Source: Balneola sp. (lineage in GTDB: Bacteria; Bacteroidota; Rhodothermia; Balneolales; Balneolaceae). From it: DNA of 64,000 bases. Location of the stretch: contig JAEPPZ010000013.1 in NCBI GenBank assembly GCA_017640785.1, positions 1 to 64,000 of the forward strand, read 5' to 3'. The position numbers and the translations under genes were made by a program. The notes under the pieces are model-generated. The model searched no databases. It was not told where the DNA came from and saw only the letters and a list, made by a program, of their open reading frames with translations. Positions 1,585-42,716 of the stretch are shown here, in pieces. Every line of letters begins with the position of its first letter. Within the stretch, counting starts at the first letter, position 1.

Positions 1585-1660
1585 TCGATCAATTTATAGA
1601 ATGACAACTGAGAATCCGAATGGGGGACATGGTTTTGTAAGGAATGGTGCGTGAGGTTGT

Positions 1661-1710
1661 CTTACTGTTTATCCGCGAAGACCTGAAGGACTTCGCGGAT
1701 AAACAGTAAG
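1661..1710. repeat. Perfect 20-bp inverted repeat (REP element, upstream copy)
   Basis: Bases 1661-1680 are exactly complementary to 1691-1710, around the 10-base loop ACCTGAAGGA. The inner 22 bases (1675-1696, GCGAAGACCTGAAGG plus ACTTCGC) recur with one change at 2380-2401 and inverted with small changes at 2160-2181. The element ends 14 bases before the start region of the transposase gene, the usual arrangement for a REP-associated tyrosine transposase. Confidence 0.85.
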
Positions 1711-1724
1711 AAACATATTTCAAT

Positions 1725-2139
1725 ATGCCGAAAAACGTATTCATCAGTTTGGCTTCATATTGTTTGGAGCACTAAACTACGGAAACCTAATTTGTTCAGG
1801 TCTTTCAGATATGATCTATTTAATTATTTAAAATCATATGGTGAGAAAAATGAAATCACAGTTGATGTAATAAATGGAATTGAAGACCATGTTCATTTAT
1901 TGATTCGTCTAAAAACCACACAGAAAATTTCAGAGGTAATAAATTTATTGAAGGGAGCCTCATCAAGATGGATAAATCTGAACGCGAACATGGAAGAAAC
2001 TTTCAAATGGCAGAATGGTTATGGCGTTTTCTCAGTAAGCGAAAAAGATATACCGAAAGTCAGAAACTATATTTACAATCAAGAAGAATATCATAAATCC
2101 ATATCCTACTCAAAAGAATTGAAGAAATTGGTCAAATAA
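1725..2139 (+). pseudogene. REP-associated tyrosine transposase (IS200-like, Y1), frameshifted near its N-terminus
   Basis: The main frame encodes the body of a Y1/HUH transposase: VWLHIVWSTKLRKPNLF, then GIEDHVHLLIRL (the HUH metal-binding pair) and NYIYNQEEYHK, which holds the likely nucleophilic tyrosine. This frame has no ATG at its beginning. An ATG at 1725 opens MPK in another frame and reaches a stop after 16 codons. Removing one A from the run at 1731-1735 would join them into MPKTYSSVWLHIVW, the usual family N-terminus. The gene is therefore either broken, read by slippage, or affected by a base-call error. REP hairpins flank it on both sides. Confidence 0.8.
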
Positions 2140-2159
2140 CTGCACTGAAACATTAGCCA

Positions 2160-2181
2160 GCGAATTCCTTCAGGTATTCGC
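2160..2181. repeat. REP hairpin, inverted copy
   Basis: The 22 bases form an imperfect hairpin. Their reverse complement, GCGAATACCTGAAGG followed by AATTCGC, matches the core of the 1675-1696 element at all but two positions. It starts 21 bases after the transposase stop, so the gene is bracketed by REPs in opposite orientation. Confidence 0.7.
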
Positions 2182-2262
2182 GAGTAGTTTAGCAATGAAT
2201 GTAGTGTAAGAGAAAAAAGAATTATTGGTTATAGATGAAATTCTAATGTGATGAGTTAAGAT

Positions 2263-2311
2263 GGAAGTCACAGACTTCCTTGTCTTGTATTTTCAAGTTA
2301 CAAACTTGAAA
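2263..2311. repeat. Pair of short hairpins in the transposase 3' spacer
   Basis: GGAAGTC (2263-2269) pairs with GACTTCC (2273-2279). TTTCAAGTT (2291-2299) pairs with AACTTGAAA (2303-2311). Two hairpins in tandem, with no gene around them, look like part of the REP-type array that fills 2140-2533. Nothing else is visible in that 394-base spacer apart from the REP at 2380. Confidence 0.55.
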
Positions 2312-2379
2312 AATCTGTGCCGGTTTGATATGGATAAAATCTTAATGTAACGATCATTGACATAAGACACGACATCATA

Positions 2380-2401
2380 GCGAAGACCTGAAGTACTTCG
2401 C
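2380..2401. repeat. REP hairpin, direct copy
   Basis: GCGAAGACCTGAAG followed by TACTTCGC is a hairpin differing by one base from 1675-1696. The similarity continues outwards: AAACAGTAA and AAACAT follow in both copies. It lies between the transposase and pyrC. Confidence 0.75.
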
Positions 2402-2533
2402 TGGCAAACAGTAATAAACATGATTCGTTATGCTGAAGACATTAAGATATTAACTAAGATTCCAATAATGCCTTTCAATATTCAAATCATAAAGCCTTAT
2501 ATTTGACCAATTCAAAAATCTAAATAGCTTAAA

Positions 2534-5622: not shown

Positions 5623-6618
5623 ATGAGATTCGCAGATTACGCTAAAATTTATGTTACCGCCGGAAAGGGTGGAGATGGTTCTGCTCATATGAGACGGGAA
5701 AAATATGTCCCTAAAGGCGGTCCGGATGGAGGAGATGGAGGAAGAGGCGGAAGTATCATTCTGAAAGGAAATGCGCAATTAAATACCATTCTGGATCTTC
5801 GTTATAAGAAATACATCAAAGCCAAAGGCGGAGCAAACGGTGGAAGTAGTCGTTCTACCGGGAAAGACGGAGAATCGATCATACTTCAGGTTCCTTTGGG
5901 AACGGTAGCTTTTGATGCAGAAACCCGGGAAAGAATGGGTGAGATCACCGAAGATGAAGAAGAGATCGTTATCGCCAAAGGAGGAAGAGGCGGACTCGGA
6001 AACTGGCATTTTAAAAGTTCTGTAAATCAAACTCCTCAATATGCTCAGGAAGGAGAAATAGGAGAGGAGAGAGTAGTTGAGCTTGAGCTTAAACTTATTG
6101 CGGATGTAGGATTGGTTGGATTTCCGAACGCCGGAAAAAGCACATTGCTTTCAGCACTTTCTCATGCAAAACCGAAAATAGCTGACTATCCGTTTACTAC
6201 ACTTGAACCAAATTTAGGAGTAGTTAAATTCTCAGATTACAGAAGTTTTGTAATGGCTGATATTCCCGGAATAATTGAAGAAGCACATCAGGGAAAAGGA
6301 TTGGGAATACAGTTTCTTCGCCATATTGAACGAAACAGCATTTTGTTGTTCATGGTGAGTTCTCAAACAGATATTGAGTATGAGTACAATGCTTTGGTGA
6401 ACGAGTTAAAAGCCTATCGGAAAGACCTTCTTGATAAGCCCAGAGTACTGGCTATAACTAAGATGGATTTAAAACAAGGTTTTAAGTTAGATAAAAAACT
6501 TCATTTTGATGATGAAATTCCCGTAATTCCAATTTCATCTGCTACCGGACATGGTGTGGATGAACTTAGAGAAGCACTTTGGGAAAAACTTCAACATGCA
6601 AAACAAGAAGATTCTTAG
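5623..6618 (+). CDS. obg: GTPase Obg/CgtA
   Basis: Obg is an essential GTPase that acts in large-subunit ribosome assembly and growth control. The 331-residue protein starts with the glycine-rich OBG fold (AGKGGDGSAHMRREKYVPKG, then GPDGGDGGRGGSI). It continues with the G domain: GFPNAGKSTL (G1, about residue 167), TTLEP (G2), DIPGIIE (G3), TKMD (G4) and SSATG (G5). There is no C-terminal OCT domain, as is common outside Firmicutes. Its 3' end overlaps the start of dprA by 23 bases. Confidence 0.96.
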   Translation: MRFADYAKIYVTAGKGGDGSAHMRREKYVPKGGPDGGDGGRGGSIILKGNAQLNTILDLRYKKYIKAKGGANGGSSRSTGKDGESIILQVPLGTVAFDAETRERMGEITEDEEEIVIAKGGRGGLGNWHFKSSVNQTPQYAQEGEIGEERVVELELKLIADVGLVGFPNAGKSTLLSALSHAKPKIADYPFTTLEPNLGVVKFSDYRSFVMADIPGIIEEAHQGKGLGIQFLRHIERNSILLFMVSSQTDIEYEYNALVNELKAYRKDLLDKPRVLAITKMDLKQGFKLDKKLHFDDEIPVIPISSATGHGVDELREALWEKLQHAKQEDS

Positions 6619-7720
6619 AAACTTAATTGCGCTAACTCTGATTCCCGGACTGGGAAGTAAGAGAGTCAGGCATTTAGTTCAGGAATGTGATCAACTCGAA
6701 AATCTATTCAATCTCAGTAAAACTCAGCTCAGAAGTTACGAAGGAGTTGGGGAAGCTACAGCTTTGGCCATTTTATCATTTGATGACTGGGAAAGTGTCG
6801 ATCAGCAAATAGAAGATACGGATAAGATCGGCGCTCAAATCATTACAATGAGAGATCCGGAATACCCGAACTTATTGAAAGAAATTTACGATCCACCAAT
6901 TCTGTATTGGCTTAAAGGCGATCCAGAAGCTCTAAAAAAACCCGGAGTAGCAGTAGTAGGAACCAGAAATGCATCAACTTACGGAAAGAAACAAGCCCAG
7001 AAATTTTCCACTAAGCTGGCAGAAAAAGGATTGTGTATTTTCAGTGGATTGGCATATGGAATTGATACCATCGGACATCAATCCGCTTTGAATGTTGGGG
7101 CTACAACAGTGGCTGTTTTGGGTTCAGGAATTGATAATCTCTATCCAAAAAGTAATACGGAAATTGCGAATGCAATTGTGAAATCAGGAGGGGCAGTTAT
7201 TTCAGAATTCCCTTTGGGGATGATTCCCGAAAAAAATAATTTTCCATTACGAAACAGAGTTGTAAGCGGACTAAGCCTTGGTGTAGTTGTAATTGAATCC
7301 GGAATAAAAGGAGGTAGCATGATCACTGCTGAACTGGCTCTCGATCAGAATCGAGAAGTTTTCGCAATTCCCCATCATCTAGAAAACCCTTCAGGCACAG
7401 GATGTAATTATCTCATAAAAAAAGGAGCTGCTAAACTGGTTCAGGTAGTTGATGATATTTTGGTGGAATTACCCATCGATTTTGAATCTGATGGAAATAG
7501 TGCAAAAGAACTCCCTAAAAAAGCACCAAGTTGGAAAGAATATAAGCTGGATAAACTAAGTACTTCCATTTGCGAGCAACTTGAACAACAATCTTTTCAA
7601 ATAGACGACCTGGCTGACGAATTGAATCTTCATACAAGTGAATTATTAGTTGCTCTGCTACAACTGGAAATGCAGGATATTATCACTCAAAAAGCCGGTA
7701 AGATCTTTGAGTTGAGGTGA
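6596..7720 (+). CDS. dprA: DNA-processing protein DprA
   Basis: DprA loads RecA on incoming single-stranded DNA during natural transformation. From the chosen start (MQNKKILRNLIAL, 374 residues) the protein has an N-terminal helix-hairpin-helix region and the Rossmann-like DprA core with VGTRNASTYGKKQA, FSGLAYGIDTIGHQSAL, GSGIDNLYP, FPLRNRVVSGLS and GGSMITAELALDQ. It ends in a winged-helix-like tail (DDLADELNL). A longer in-frame start at 6551 exists but lies deep inside obg. The 6596 start matches the family N-terminus and suggests coupling to obg. Confidence 0.94.
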   Translation: MQNKKILRNLIALTLIPGLGSKRVRHLVQECDQLENLFNLSKTQLRSYEGVGEATALAILSFDDWESVDQQIEDTDKIGAQIITMRDPEYPNLLKEIYDPPILYWLKGDPEALKKPGVAVVGTRNASTYGKKQAQKFSTKLAEKGLCIFSGLAYGIDTIGHQSALNVGATTVAVLGSGIDNLYPKSNTEIANAIVKSGGAVISEFPLGMIPEKNNFPLRNRVVSGLSLGVVVIESGIKGGSMITAELALDQNREVFAIPHHLENPSGTGCNYLIKKGAAKLVQVVDDILVELPIDFESDGNSAKELPKKAPSWKEYKLDKLSTSICEQLEQQSFQIDDLADELNLHTSELLVALLQLEMQDIITQKAGKIFELR

Positions 7721-7813
7721 TCAACTTTGTATACACTTTAGTATTTTCTGCTTCTTTGTCTATAAATAATGAACGATTCTATAGGAGAACTATATCATAA
7801 ATACATAGAAATT

Positions 7814-7849
7814 GGTCATCCCGAACTTGTTTCGGGATCTTTGTAAGGG
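7814..7849. repeat. Dispersed palindromic repeat (ATCCCGAA/TTCGGGAT), copy 1
   Basis: GGTCATCCCGAACTTG followed by TTTCGGGATCTTTGTAAGG is a hairpin repeat. It is almost identical to 41394-41428 and inverted with respect to 41775-41805. Here it lies in the 325-base gene-free spacer between dprA and the convergent P19-like gene. Confidence 0.75.
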
Positions 7850-40550: not shown

Positions 40551-41210
40551 ATGAATAAAAATTCAAAAAAACCATGGCCTACCAAAGCAGCAATGGCTCA
40601 GGTTTATGAAATGAATCTTTGGGGAGGAGAGAGCGACGAATTTTATTCAGGAGATGGCTCACATTTTTCTGAGTTAGTAGATCCGTATATCAATGTTGTT
40701 AAATCATTTTTGTCTTCTTTTGATGATTCACTAACAGTTTGTGACTTGGGGTGTGGAGATTTCAATGTTGGGAAAGAGCTGGTACAACATTCAAAAAAAT
40801 ACATCGCTGTAGATATTGTCCCTGAATTGATCGAGAGAAATAAGCAGATGTTCAAAGCTGATCATTTGGAATTCCGGTGTTTGAATATCGCCAATGATGA
40901 TCTTCCTGAAGCTGATTGTGCAATACTGAGACAAGTTCTTCAGCACTTATCGAATGCAGAAGTAAAGAGTGTAGTTCAAAAATTGAAAGACTATAAATAC
41001 GTTATTCTCACAGAACATATTCCTGAAGGAGGTTTTGATCCTAACACAGATATCATCTCAGGACAGGGAACCAGGCTAAAAAAGAAAAGTGGTTTAAGAA
41101 TATTGGAGTCCCCGTTCAATTTTAAGGTAAAAGAGAAGCAAAAGTTATTATCAATTGTTTTGGATGACGGAAGAGGAATTATAGAAACCTGGCTTTATCG
41201 GATTTTCTAG
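40551..41210 (+). CDS. Class I SAM-dependent methyltransferase
   Basis: The 219-residue protein has the SAM-binding motif VCDLGCGDFNVGKEL, then KYIAVDIVPELIERNK (motif II acidic residue) and FRCLNIANDDLPEADCAILRQVLQHL (motifs III-IV). The N-terminal MNLWGGESDEFYSGDGSH is seen in methyltransferases acting on small molecules or glycans, but no substrate can be named. It appears monocistronic, and a repeat-rich spacer follows. Confidence 0.85.
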   Translation: MNKNSKKPWPTKAAMAQVYEMNLWGGESDEFYSGDGSHFSELVDPYINVVKSFLSSFDDSLTVCDLGCGDFNVGKELVQHSKKYIAVDIVPELIERNKQMFKADHLEFRCLNIANDDLPEADCAILRQVLQHLSNAEVKSVVQKLKDYKYVILTEHIPEGGFDPNTDIISGQGTRLKKKSGLRILESPFNFKVKEKQKLLSIVLDDGRGIIETWLYRIF

Positions 41211-41393
41211 CATCTCAGAATAATTCTAAGAGACCTTTTAAATTATTCGGATTCAAGTAAGCGGTCTCTATAGTACTATTAGGTTAAGCTTTACACTAGA
41301 AGAGCCTTCAGGCTCGGCTTAAAGCACAGAGGTTGGTCATTCTTGTAGATGTCAGGTAATTCACTGACAGTTTTTGAACAGTAAAATATATAG

Positions 41394-41428
41394 GGTCATC
41401 CCGAACTCGTTTCGGGATCTTTGTAAGG
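41394..41428. repeat. Dispersed palindromic repeat, copy 2 (left flank of GIY-YIG gene)
   Basis: GGTCATCCCGAACTCG then TTTCGGGATCTTTGTAAGG is nearly identical to 7814-7849. It contains the ATCCCGAA/TTCGGGAT hairpin. It is 28 bases before the GIY-YIG start. The remaining spacer from 41211 holds two short hairpins (GAGCC/GGCTC near 41315 and GTCAG/CTGAC near 41355) and no gene. Confidence 0.8.
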
Positions 41429-41456
41429 AATTGCTCTTGAAACGGTCTTACTTACT

Positions 41457-41750
41457 ATGAACAAAGGCTATGTGTACTTTCTAACTAACTATCGAAGAAC
41501 TACGATGTACATCGGAGTTACCAATAACATTCATTCAAGAGTGTGGAAACATAAACTGGGAGAAGGGTCTTTATTTACTTCAAAGTATAAACTAACCATT
41601 CTTATATATGCGGAAGAATACGATACTATAAGTGATGCTATAGCAAGGGAGAAGCAATTAAAAAATTGGCATAAACAGTGGAAATGGAATCTGGTAAAGC
41701 AAAACAATCCAAAATTAGAGGATTGGTATGATACCTTAAGAGGATGGTAA
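41457..41750 (+). CDS. GIY-YIG nuclease family protein
   Basis: The 97-residue protein is a stand-alone GIY-YIG domain of the UPF0213/YhbQ type: GYVYFLTNYRRTTMYIGVTNN (with the Tyr pair and catalytic Arg in HSRVWKHK), KYKLTILIYAEEYDTISDAIAREKQLKNWHKQWKWNLV, and a C-terminal W(Y)DTLRGW. The glutamate in AIAREKQLK is the conserved metal ligand. Such single-domain proteins are multicopy in many Bacteroidota. Here the gene lies between inverted copies of a palindromic repeat, which suggests a mobile or repeat-linked unit. Confidence 0.92.
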   Translation: MNKGYVYFLTNYRRTTMYIGVTNNIHSRVWKHKLGEGSLFTSKYKLTILIYAEEYDTISDAIAREKQLKNWHKQWKWNLVKQNNPKLEDWYDTLRGW

Positions 41751-41774
41751 ACAAGAACAGACTAAAAGCCTTTA

Positions 41775-41805
41775 CGTAAGATCCCGAAATAAATTCGGGA
41801 TGACC
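41775..41805. repeat. Dispersed palindromic repeat, copy 3 inverted (right flank of GIY-YIG gene)
   Basis: GATCCCGAAATAAATTCGGG followed by ATGACC is the reverse complement of the left-flank element with a few changes. The GIY-YIG gene is therefore framed by inverted repeats about 350 bases apart. Confidence 0.75.
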
Positions 41806-41892
41806 TGCTTGCAATATTGAGGTTGGAATAAAGAAATTTTGTCAACGAATTATCTAACATCTACAACCCTGAACTTGATTCAGGATTGTAGA

Positions 41893-41984: not shown

Positions 41985-42716
41985 TTATTTTTCGTCCATT
42001 CGTTTCTTTTGATCCGCAAACTTATCTAAACAATCATCCAAAATGTCGCCGTCTAAATGAACACATTCACAAAATTCATTTCCAATGTTCTCATATTCAG
42101 TACCGGCATATTGTTTATTACAATCAGATAATGAATTCCTTGGCATAATATCAAATCCATGCAGGAATGTTAAAATTGTTAGCGCGAAAGTTGCTCCAAC
42201 TCCACCAAAGAATAAGAAAGGAAATTTGTTTTCGTATTTCTCCGGTCTTTTTACAATACCGAAATCAGATACTTTCTTGAATGGAAAAATGTACTTTAAT
42301 CTGTCATAATTCCAAGCGAGTATATATAAATTAGCTAGAACCATTAAAGTTGAAGTGATAAACGAACCTTCAAATCTTACGGCTATAGAAAGAATACATA
42401 TATTTAAAATGATCGGGAAATAGAGTAGCGCACCTAAAGTTACTGTCCGTGGTATTAAAAGTAATATTGCTGCAAGAATTTGGGCAATTCCGATAAAGGG
42501 ATAATAAAAACCTGTATGATGTAGAGCAGTTAAATACGCTCCCATTGGATGGATTTCCGATAAACCGCCGGCAAATCTTTCGTCGATAATTTTCACGATT
42601 CCGGCCGCAATAAAAGCGTAAGCTAAAATTATTCGACAAAAAATAGAGAAATACCAATACCATCTATTTTGCTTGACTTGATAATGCAATTCATCAAGTT
42701 TTGATCCTAGGCTCAT
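41985..42716 (-). CDS. DoxX family membrane protein
   Basis: The 243-residue protein has four N-terminal membrane helices with FIAAGIVKIIDERFAGG (DoxX-type first loop) and a HPMGAYLTALHHTGFYYP segment. A fifth helix precedes a polar C-terminal tail of about 50 residues containing three cysteines (SDCNKQ, FCECVH, DDCLDK). DoxX proteins act in membrane redox or sulfur metabolism; no specific role is clear here. The cysteine-bearing tail is unusual for the family. It lies between the two 60-bp repeats. Confidence 0.78.
   Translation of the reverse strand: MSLGSKLDELHYQVKQNRWYWYFSIFCRIILAYAFIAAGIVKIIDERFAGGLSEIHPMGAYLTALHHTGFYYPFIGIAQILAAILLLIPRTVTLGALLYFPIILNICILSIAVRFEGSFITSTLMVLANLYILAWNYDRLKYIFPFKKVSDFGIVKRPEKYENKFPFLFFGGVGATFALTILTFLHGFDIMPRNSLSDCNKQYAGTEYENIGNEFCECVHLDGDILDDCLDKFADQKKRMDEK

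What the first reader, a model, noticed from the sequence alone, without database searches (positions are those of the whole stretch)
41394..41805. GIY-YIG gene framed by inverted palindromic repeats
The gene for a stand-alone GIY-YIG nuclease lies between GGTCATCCCGA... and ...TCGGGATGACC, inverted copies of a hairpin repeat that also occurs at 7814. A nuclease gene bounded by such repeats could be a small mobile or gene-conversion unit, with the repeat as recognition site.
Basis: partly seen in the sequence, partly recalled or inferred. Interest (0 to 1): 0.5.

Follow-up and report, generated by a model that had tools for sequence, protein, structure and literature searches.

The report
Nuclease gene framed by its repeats
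In a bacterium that is probably a Balneola, a tiny gene for a likely DNA-cutting enzyme sits between two mirror copies of a short hairpin repeat scattered through the genome; the gene-plus-repeat unit is found at several places, and related enzymes carry related repeats, so the repeat is probably what the enzyme recognises.

Summary
A 97-aa GIY-YIG gene (41457-41750) lies between convergent copies of a 28-nt hairpin repeat (41394-41421, 41778-41805). The unit is not unique: the own genome holds a second near-identical copy, and Balneola sp. EhC07 holds further intact and decayed copies. The repeat occurs 45 times genome-wide, against 0 in the reversed control. Opposite-strand neighbours within 600 bp were convergent in 29 of 29 cases in four genomes, 9 of them 81-89 bp apart: REPIN-like doublets without the gene. 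Some are present or absent between species. Across 77 loci, closely related GIY-YIG proteins from different genera mostly share a flanking repeat and distant ones rarely do (within-genome permutation 0 of 2000). In the window the unit is nested in a 522-bp element with 26-nt imperfect outer inverted repeats, copies of which lie inside such repeats. Best reading: a nuclease with its own recognition hairpin, spread as a selfish unit, like the ssDNA nuclease Ssn with its target repeats (recalled; paper not held) and organised like REPINs. That the nuclease itself drives movement is not shown.

The parts
41394..41421 (+). Left repeat, type A REP-like hairpin GGTCATCCCGAACTCGTTTCGGGATCTT
41457..41750 (+). 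Stand-alone GIY-YIG nuclease gene, 97 aa
   Evidence: PF01541 51.3 bits; ORF; dN/dS 0.06-0.16 in five comparisons of this copy (L008) with other close copies
41778..41805 (-). Right repeat, inverted copy of the hairpin (reads GGTCATCCCGAATTTATTTCGGGATCTT on the minus strand)
41344..41369 (+). Outer terminal inverted repeat, left (TGTAGATGTCAGGTAATTCACTGACA)
   Evidence: similar arms in L044, L045, L047
41840..41865 (-). Outer terminal inverted repeat, right
   Evidence: outer element is 522 bp
41335..41343 (+). Left remnant of another repeat (GGTCATTCT) into which the outer element appears inserted
   Evidence: left against right flank matches 3 of 5 bases here, 4 of 5 at the orthologous site L045
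41866..41886 (+). Right remnant of that repeat (ACCCTGAACTTGATTCAGGAT)
7814..7841 (+). Left-end copy of the type A repeat, no nuclease gene; about 90 bp downstream of a DprA gene (6551-7720)

Best explanation
The gene encodes a small site-specific GIY-YIG nuclease whose recognition site is the GTCAT-hairpin-ATCT repeat that frames it. Gene plus two convergent repeats is a unit that has multiplied in Balneola. Pairs of repeats that have lost or never had the gene form a population of REPIN-like, non-autonomous doublets. Different clades of the nuclease have different repeat types. SHOWN: unit anatomy; multiple copies; convergent-only pairing in four genomes; presence/absence between species; repeat type follows nuclease relatedness; purifying selection on the protein. 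INFERRED: the nuclease binds and cuts its repeat, most likely as a folded single-stranded hairpin (by analogy with Ssn, recalled), during replication or DNA uptake, and repair or recombination at the cut spreads or homogenises repeats and units. In the window the unit additionally rides in an outer element with its own inverted repeats that inserts into such hairpins; the transposase of that outer element is unknown.
For: Copies: L008 and L010 in the own genome; EhC07 (G007) has 4 intact close copies, 97-aa type L044/L045/L047 and 96-aa type L053, plus several broken ones. Genome-wide repeat: 45 against 0 in the control. Pair orientation in G000, G007, G002 and G003: 29 convergent, 0 divergent, 9 tandem within 600 bp; 9 of the 29 spacings are 81-89 bp and 7 are 370-397 bp (gene-sized). 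Second repeat type in G000: 10 convergent, 0 divergent, 0 tandem, spacing 52-53 bp in 9 of 10. Two doublets folded as one long ssDNA hairpin each (z -4.8, -3.3). Repeats present or absent between species at sites B, D, G (doublets) and F (single repeat). Clade-repeat co-variation: different-genus pairs with protein identity >=0.75 share a flank repeat (score >=36) in 90% of 41 pairs, 0.60-0.75 in 53% of 115, 0.50-0.60 in 9% of 234, below 0.50 in about 1% of 1971; permuting flanks among paralogs within genomes gives 0 of 2000 at or above observed. Inverted flank match above all 113 in-locus controls in 40 of 57 loci from many phyla. Genomes: 10 of 10 with a close homologue (E<1e-40) have the type A repeat, 9 of 48 without have it (P 1.8e-6). 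dN/dS 0.06-0.16 for five comparisons of L008 with close copies.
Against: The genome-level association is not type-specific: type A repeat against clade B gene is also significant (P 3e-4), type B repeat against clade A gene too (P 4e-6), so shared ancestry confounds it. Repeats occur without a close homologue (type A in G004 and G009; type B in G001, G007, G012, G017), and G032 has a clade B gene but no type B match. L258 (G030), 80% identical to L004, lacks its flank repeat (score 18). Y1 transposases also correlate with type A repeats (18 of 19 repeat-bearing genomes, P 6e-5). The only clean insertion (L044) has the ends of the outer element, and the sequence to its left differs from that of the relatives. 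L048, a unit with perfect 28-nt ends and no outer repeats, has no orthologous site in 7 congeners. Presence/absence sites show no clean boundaries or target duplications. Outside Balneolaceae a strict GTC-hairpin motif frames the gene in only 8 of 42 loci and is on either flank in 18 of 42. L012 has no such repeats in the flanks compared and L001 one side only. Two pairs of very close copies have higher dN/dS on few changes (L010/L046 0.59 on 7; L050/L054 0.24 on 4).
Confidence: 0.7

Rival explanations
1. The repeats are ordinary RAYT-driven REPs/REPINs, moved by a Y1 (HUH) transposase elsewhere in the genome; the GIY-YIG gene is a passenger.
For: Eight Y1_Tnp matches in the own genome, one in the window at 1738-2082; 18 of 19 genomes with type A repeats have a Y1 match; doublet anatomy equals REPINs as described in PMC3116915 (abstract and Discussion read).
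Against: The eight Y1 matches of the own genome lie 682 bp (one) and 5.7 to 87 kb (seven) from the nearest type A repeat on their contig; the window's Y1 gene has a different hairpin beside it; G013 has 18 repeats and no Y1 match, and 16 Y1-bearing genomes have no type A repeat. Repeat type follows GIY-YIG relatedness. The matching test for Y1 clades was not done.
Confidence: 0.1
2. The GIY-YIG unit is only cargo of the outer inverted-repeat element, a MITE moved in trans by an unknown transposase with 5-bp target duplications that targets REP hairpins.
For: L044: element flanked by GAAAT on both sides where G000, G001 and G002 have an uninterrupted repeat. The outer motif occurs 56 times against 7 in the control (up to 3 mismatches), including three 607-bp elements without an evident gene; 6 of 15 elements match in at least 4 of 5 flank bases, permutation P 0.015.
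Against: Units without outer repeats in the flanks shown exist (L048; L003, L006, L007; L050, L052, L054 in relatives), and so do doublets (L014, L017, L040; L038 has a degenerate right arm). The nuclease/repeat pairing is found in other phyla. 9 of 15 outer elements match in 3 or fewer flank bases.
Confidence: 0.25
3. A host-serving role: the nuclease cuts incoming or lagging-strand ssDNA at the repeats and so tunes natural transformation or recombination next to repeat-marked genes, as recalled for Ssn in Neisseria; spread of the unit is incidental.
For: Purifying selection; repeat at 7814 just downstream of DprA, a transformation protein (role recalled); Ssn analogy (recalled).
Against: Several copies are broken in EhC07, UBA3186 and others, which suggests that no single copy is essential; competence of Balneola was not tested here.
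Confidence: 0.3
4. Chance or mere intergenic clustering: REP-like repeats are common in intergenic DNA and small genes happen to lie among them.
For: Such repeats are extragenic in general (recalled), and the uniform expectation overstates significance.
Against: Even with an assumed 12% intergenic correction P is 9e-5; relatedness-dependent pairing and 29:0 orientation.
Confidence: 0.03

Closest known systems
Ssn site-specific ssDNA nucleases of the GIY-YIG superfamily and their target repeats NTS/dRS3 (Neisseria meningitidis; Chenal et al., Nat Commun 2025, RECALLED; nothing of it seen; not found)
   Same: Small stand-alone GIY-YIG protein; many hairpin repeats in intergenic DNA; repeat paired with the nuclease (all recalled). 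dRS3 pattern ATTCCC(N8)GGGAAT, almost 700 copies, and the dRS3/RS mosaic elements: passages read in PMC3898611.
   Different: Here the gene itself is multicopy inside a repeat-bounded unit, with decayed copies and gene-less doublets, nested in another element; cleavage not tested.
REPINs and RAYTs (PMC3116915; abstract and Discussion read)
   Same: Short palindromic repeats arranged as inverted doublets with preferred spacing that fold into one hairpin; repeat type tied to an enzyme; singlets arising by deletion between the two repeats (site C in G004 matches this route).
   Different: Enzyme is GIY-YIG, not a Y1 HUH transposase; per PMC3116915 RAYTs are single-copy, here the gene is multicopy.
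MITEs / insertion sequences
   Same: Outer element with terminal inverted repeats, apparent 5-bp target duplication in some copies, and a 607-bp relative without an evident gene.
   Different: No transposase found in the element; sits in REP-like hairpins.
UPF0213 proteins of known structure (1ywl, 1zg2)
   Same: Weak sequence match, E 0.003 and 0.05.
   Different: Distant; function of those proteins not established by this search.

Membership tests
GIY-YIG nuclease superfamily (PF01541) | Domain score above Pfam cut-off | tested here: met
   51.3 bits against 22.6
GIY-YIG nuclease superfamily (PF01541) | Conserved GIY/YIG tyrosines, Arg, Glu and C-terminal Asn | tested here: met
   Y, Y, N, Y-G, R, EKQLK and NP columns invariant or nearly so in a 23-sequence alignment; assignment of catalytic roles recalled
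Ssn-type site-specific ssDNA nuclease | Genome-wide hairpin repeat population paired with the gene (feature recalled) | tested here: met
Ssn-type site-specific ssDNA nuclease | Repeat type co-varies with nuclease clade (feature recalled) | tested here: met
   0 of 2000 permutations; whole-unit descent not excluded
Ssn-type site-specific ssDNA nuclease | Cleaves its repeat in ssDNA, sequence-specifically | not testable with these tools
   needs purified protein
Ssn-type site-specific ssDNA nuclease | Sequence kinship with Neisseria Ssn | not tested
   no Neisseria Ssn sequence fetched; no NCBIfam hit for the window protein
REPIN | Inverted REP doublets, preferred spacing, single ssDNA hairpin | tested here: met
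   29 convergent, 0 divergent, 9 tandem; 9 of 29 at 81-89 bp; two doublets fold with z -4.8 and -3.3
REPIN | Associated with a Y1 tyrosine transposase (RAYT) in the vicinity | tested here: not met
   None of 8 Y1 matches within 600 bp of a type A repeat in the own genome
Insertion sequence / DDE transposon | Transposase inside the element | tested here: not met
   Only the GIY-YIG ORF (of those >=80 aa) lies between the outer repeats
Insertion sequence / DDE transposon | Target-site duplication | tested here: inconclusive
   Outer element: 2 of 15 perfect, 6 of 15 with at least 4 of 5; inner unit: none demonstrated
Known anti-phage defence or phage protein | Match in PADLOC or PHROGs at E<=0.001 | tested here: not met
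   0 families

The most novel reading that the evidence does not exclude
GIY-YIG nucleases are the engine of a second, RAYT-independent class of REPIN-like mobile DNA: the enzyme cuts its own hairpin in single-stranded DNA and thereby spreads both gene-bearing units and gene-less doublets. This class, with the constant frame GTCAT-hairpin-ATCT, would account for many of the unexplained intergenic repeats of Bacteroidota, Balneolota, Clostridia and Proteobacteria.
Probability: 0.3. Interest if true: 0.8.

Novelty: new variant of a known kind. Interest (0 to 1): 0.55.

Why it matters
REP-like repeats are common in bacterial intergenic DNA, and outside RAYT genomes their origin is mostly unexplained (recalled). 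Here one genus holds gene-bearing units, dead units, gene-less doublets and sites without them at the same loci in different species, so the question whether a GIY-YIG nuclease maintains or spreads its repeat can be tested directly. It also offers several natural enzyme/repeat pairs with distinct repeats in one genome.

Tried and rejected
The hairpin GTAAGG...TCTTAC upstream of the start codon looked conserved by eye but does not fold better than shuffles (z -0.56), so no role is claimed. A clean empty site for the inner unit was sought and not found: L048 has no ortholog in 7 congeners; the L047 site carries outer arms with other interiors in relatives. Genome-level co-occurrence as proof of specificity was rejected, because cross-controls (other clade's gene, Y1 genes) are significant too. 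A longer, autonomous outer element was looked for only among the outer-motif pairs of the own genome, which are at most 818 bp long among those read. Paper searches on GIY-YIG with REP, REPIN, Ssn, palindromic/intergenic/transposition, Neisseria/dRS3, natural transformation, Veyrier and ssDNA listed no paper whose title or abstract start links stand-alone GIY-YIG genes with REP-like repeats; the listed papers were not read for it, except passages of PMC1564403. The Ssn paper is known to me only from memory. Structure prediction was not run.

Dropped rows: one search used 57 of 66 loci (nine partial or contig-end loci left out by me); its 113 control windows are not matched for intergenic position. 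One search used 77 loci after removing duplicates and proteins under 75 aa; the loci given to one search were a chosen subset of the matches, and of the 13 GIY-YIG loci of G000 only 10 gave a row (L005, L009 and L013 did not). One search used the type A places that one search listed: 68 of 73 for G007, 40 of 40 for G002, 28 of 29 for G003 (one strand of a palindromic site dropped), and 44 of 45 for G000; other genomes were not examined for orientation. In one search, 15 elements had both ends read (11 in G000, 4 in relatives); the window element and L045 are the same site in two species, so they are not independent.

Full report
WHAT IS THERE. Between 41394 and 41805 lies a 97-aa ORF (41457-41750) with a GIY-YIG domain (51.3 bits, cut-off 22.6), framed by two convergent copies of a 28-nt repeat, GGTCATCCCGAAYTYRTTTCGGGATCTT. 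Each copy folds as an 8-bp hairpin in single-stranded DNA (z -3.3 and -3.9). Neighbours are a methyltransferase-domain gene (40551-41210), with dihydrofolate reductase and thymidylate synthase genes before it, and an ORF without a Pfam match (41985-42716). Outside the repeats is a second, outer, imperfect inverted pair, TGTAGATGTCAGGTAATTC at 41344 and its counterpart ending at 41865, and outside that what look like the two halves of a further repeat (41335-41343 and 41866-41886). So the structure is nested: repeat half, outer inverted repeat, nuclease repeat, gene, and back.

WHERE IT COMES FROM. The closest named hits are Balneola sp. EhC07 (97% protein identity), an uncultured Balneola (96%) and Balneolaceae MAGs, so a Balneola species is inferred.

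THE UNIT IS MULTICOPY. G000 has 13 GIY-YIG matches. Two are in long frames (615 and 275 aa), the rest in frames of 89-151 aa. L010 on another contig is a near-identical second copy of the whole unit in a different context. G007 has further copies: L044, L045 and L047 intact with similar outer arms, L053 an intact copy of a related 96-aa type, L048 with perfect 28-nt ends but a stop, and several truncated ones. Broken copies between repeat pairs also occur in G000 (C10:59-292), G002 (two, one stop each) and G003 (9 stops). Five comparisons of L008 with close copies give dN/dS 0.06-0.16; two very close pairs give more on few changes (L010/L046 0.59 on 7; L050/L054 0.24 on 4). The protein therefore looks selected even though single copies decay.

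THE REPEAT POPULATION. The hairpin pattern TCATCCYGAA-N-TTCRGGAT occurs 45 times in G000 and 0 times in the reversed control. In four genomes (G000, G007, G002, G003; places as listed), neighbours within 600 bp are convergent in 29 cases, divergent in 0, tandem in 9; 9 of the 29 spacings are 81-89 bp and 7 are 370-397 bp, the gene-bearing size. Left and right ends differ next to the repeat (GGATCTTTGTRAGG against GCCTTTACGTAAGATCC, read by eye), and several short doublets share these inner ends with the gene-bearing unit, as internal-deletion derivatives would. A second repeat type, GTCATTTCGA...GAAATCT, which flanks the different GIY-YIG gene L004, gives 10 convergent, 0 divergent and 0 tandem pairs in G000, with 52-53 bp spacing in 9 of 10. 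The two doublets that were folded make one long ssDNA hairpin each (z -4.8, -3.3). This is the anatomy of REPINs as described in PMC3116915 (abstract and Discussion read).

POLYMORPHISM AND FOOTPRINTS. Flanks of seven G000 repeat sites were followed into up to four congeners each. B (doublet): present in G000, G001, G002, not in G004, G007. D (doublet): in G000, G001, G007, not in G002, G004. G (doublet): in G000, G004, not in G001, G007; the G002 stretch was not comparable. F (single repeat at 7814): in G000, G007, not in G001, G002, G004. A: shared by G000 and G007, while G002 and G004 hold other sequence there. C: in G000 and G002, a footprint in G004, none in G001 and G007. E (single repeat): in G000 and G004, not in G002. 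Boundaries are not clean, so these show gain or loss, not a mechanism. At site C, G004 keeps one composite palindrome made of the outer halves of both repeats, the singlet route that PMC3116915 describes. At site D, the left repeat of G000 has become a perfect palindrome while G001 and G007 keep the ordinary form.

THE OUTER ELEMENT. At the L044 site, G007 carries a 530-bp composite element flanked by GAAAT on both sides where G000, G001 and G002 have an uninterrupted type B repeat; the sequence further left in G007 differs from theirs, and G004 has neither. Outer-motif matches number 56 in G000 against 7 in the control (up to 3 mismatches). Of 15 elements with both ends read, 2 have a perfect and 6 at least a 4-of-5 match of the flanking pentamers (permutation P 0.015), and 9 of 15 abut GTCATNNN or its reverse complement on at least one side (counted by eye). 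Three copies are 607 bp and show no evident gene (not searched against families). So part of the spread of the nuclease gene in Balneola is probably hitch-hiking in this element. Its transposase was not found.

WHO OWNS THE REPEAT. For 77 GIY-YIG loci in Balneola and relatives, different-genus pairs share a flank repeat (score at least 36) in 90% of 41 pairs at protein identity 0.75 or more, in 53% of 115 at 0.60-0.75, in 9% of 234 at 0.50-0.60, and in about 1% of 1971 below 0.50. Exchanging flanks among paralogs within each genome never reached the observed mean (0 of 2000; 34.2 against 25.3 +/- 1.1). Exceptions exist: L258 (G030) is 80% identical to L004 but lacks its flank repeat. Whole-unit inheritance can produce part of this; either way gene and repeat travel together. 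In 57 of the 66 loci, from many phyla, the best inverted match between the two flanks exceeds all 113 in-locus controls in 40. A stricter GTC-hairpin motif is found upstream in forward orientation in 27 of 57 (reverse: 6) and downstream in reverse in 23 of 57 (forward: 10), against 10 and 8 of 340 control windows; it frames the gene in 12 of 15 Balneolaceae loci but in only 8 of 42 others, and is on either flank in 18 of those 42. By eye the frame GTCAT-hairpin-ATCT recurs from Balneola to Clostridia and Proteobacteria.

GENOME-LEVEL ASSOCIATION AND ITS LIMITS. Of 58 genomes, 10 of 10 with a close homologue (E<1e-40) have the type A repeat and 9 of 48 without have it (P 1.8e-6); in the family outside the own genus, Spearman is 0.76 over 27 genomes. 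For type B it is 8 of 9 against 7 of 49 (P 2.6e-5). But the crossed tests (A repeat with B gene, P 3e-4; B repeat with A gene, P 4e-6) and Y1 genes (P 6e-5) are significant too, so these counts alone do not prove specificity. In several genomes repeats occur without a close homologue (G004, G009 for type A; G001, G007, G012, G017 for type B).

RIVALS. RAYT: Y1 genes exist (8 matches in G000, one at 1738-2082 of the window), but none lies within 600 bp of a type A repeat, the window's Y1 gene has a different hairpin beside it, and G013 has 18 repeats without any Y1 match. Cargo of the outer element: likely for some copies, but units and doublets without it exist. Host role in transformation: open.

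VERDICT. By anatomy, though not by biochemistry, this belongs with the GIY-YIG nuclease/cognate-repeat kind (Ssn, recalled). The new aspects are the multicopy, nested, decaying unit and the REPIN-like gene-less doublets.

Noticed in passing
window 1660-2420: A Y1_Tnp (RAYT-like) match at 1738-2082 with a 25-bp hairpin just upstream (1660-1711) and a related hairpin downstream near 2390: possibly a second, independent enzyme/REP pair in the same window.
   Followed up: partly
window 6551-7841: The lone left-end repeat at 7814 lies about 90 bp downstream of a DprA gene, a protein of natural transformation (role recalled).
   Followed up: no
G000 C11:11496-12102, C5:18499-19105, C13:38501-39107 (L116, L125, L129): Three 607-bp elements without an evident gene, with similar outer inverted repeats and internal palindromes, lying in REP-like repeats.
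   Followed up: partly
L055, L056, L106: The GIY-YIG gene is interrupted by a foreign stretch with TTCAAGCGTCAC...AGACGCTTGCGTTAGCTGG in L056 and, by its translation, in L055; L106 shows a similar stretch after its broken gene.
   Followed up: no
L002 (G000) and L270 (G003): Another GIY-YIG clade is flanked by a different inverted repeat, CCCCGCACATAACAT / CCCAGCACATAACGT, unlike the GTCAT hairpins.
   Followed up: no
L231 and L026: Footprints: a deletion between the two repeats leaving one composite palindrome (G004), and a repeat turned into a perfect palindrome (G000).
   Followed up: partly
L047 site (L182-L186): The left outer arm is seen in five species and the right arm in G007 and G002, but the interiors differ, as expected of gene conversion or repeated nested insertion.
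   Followed up: partly
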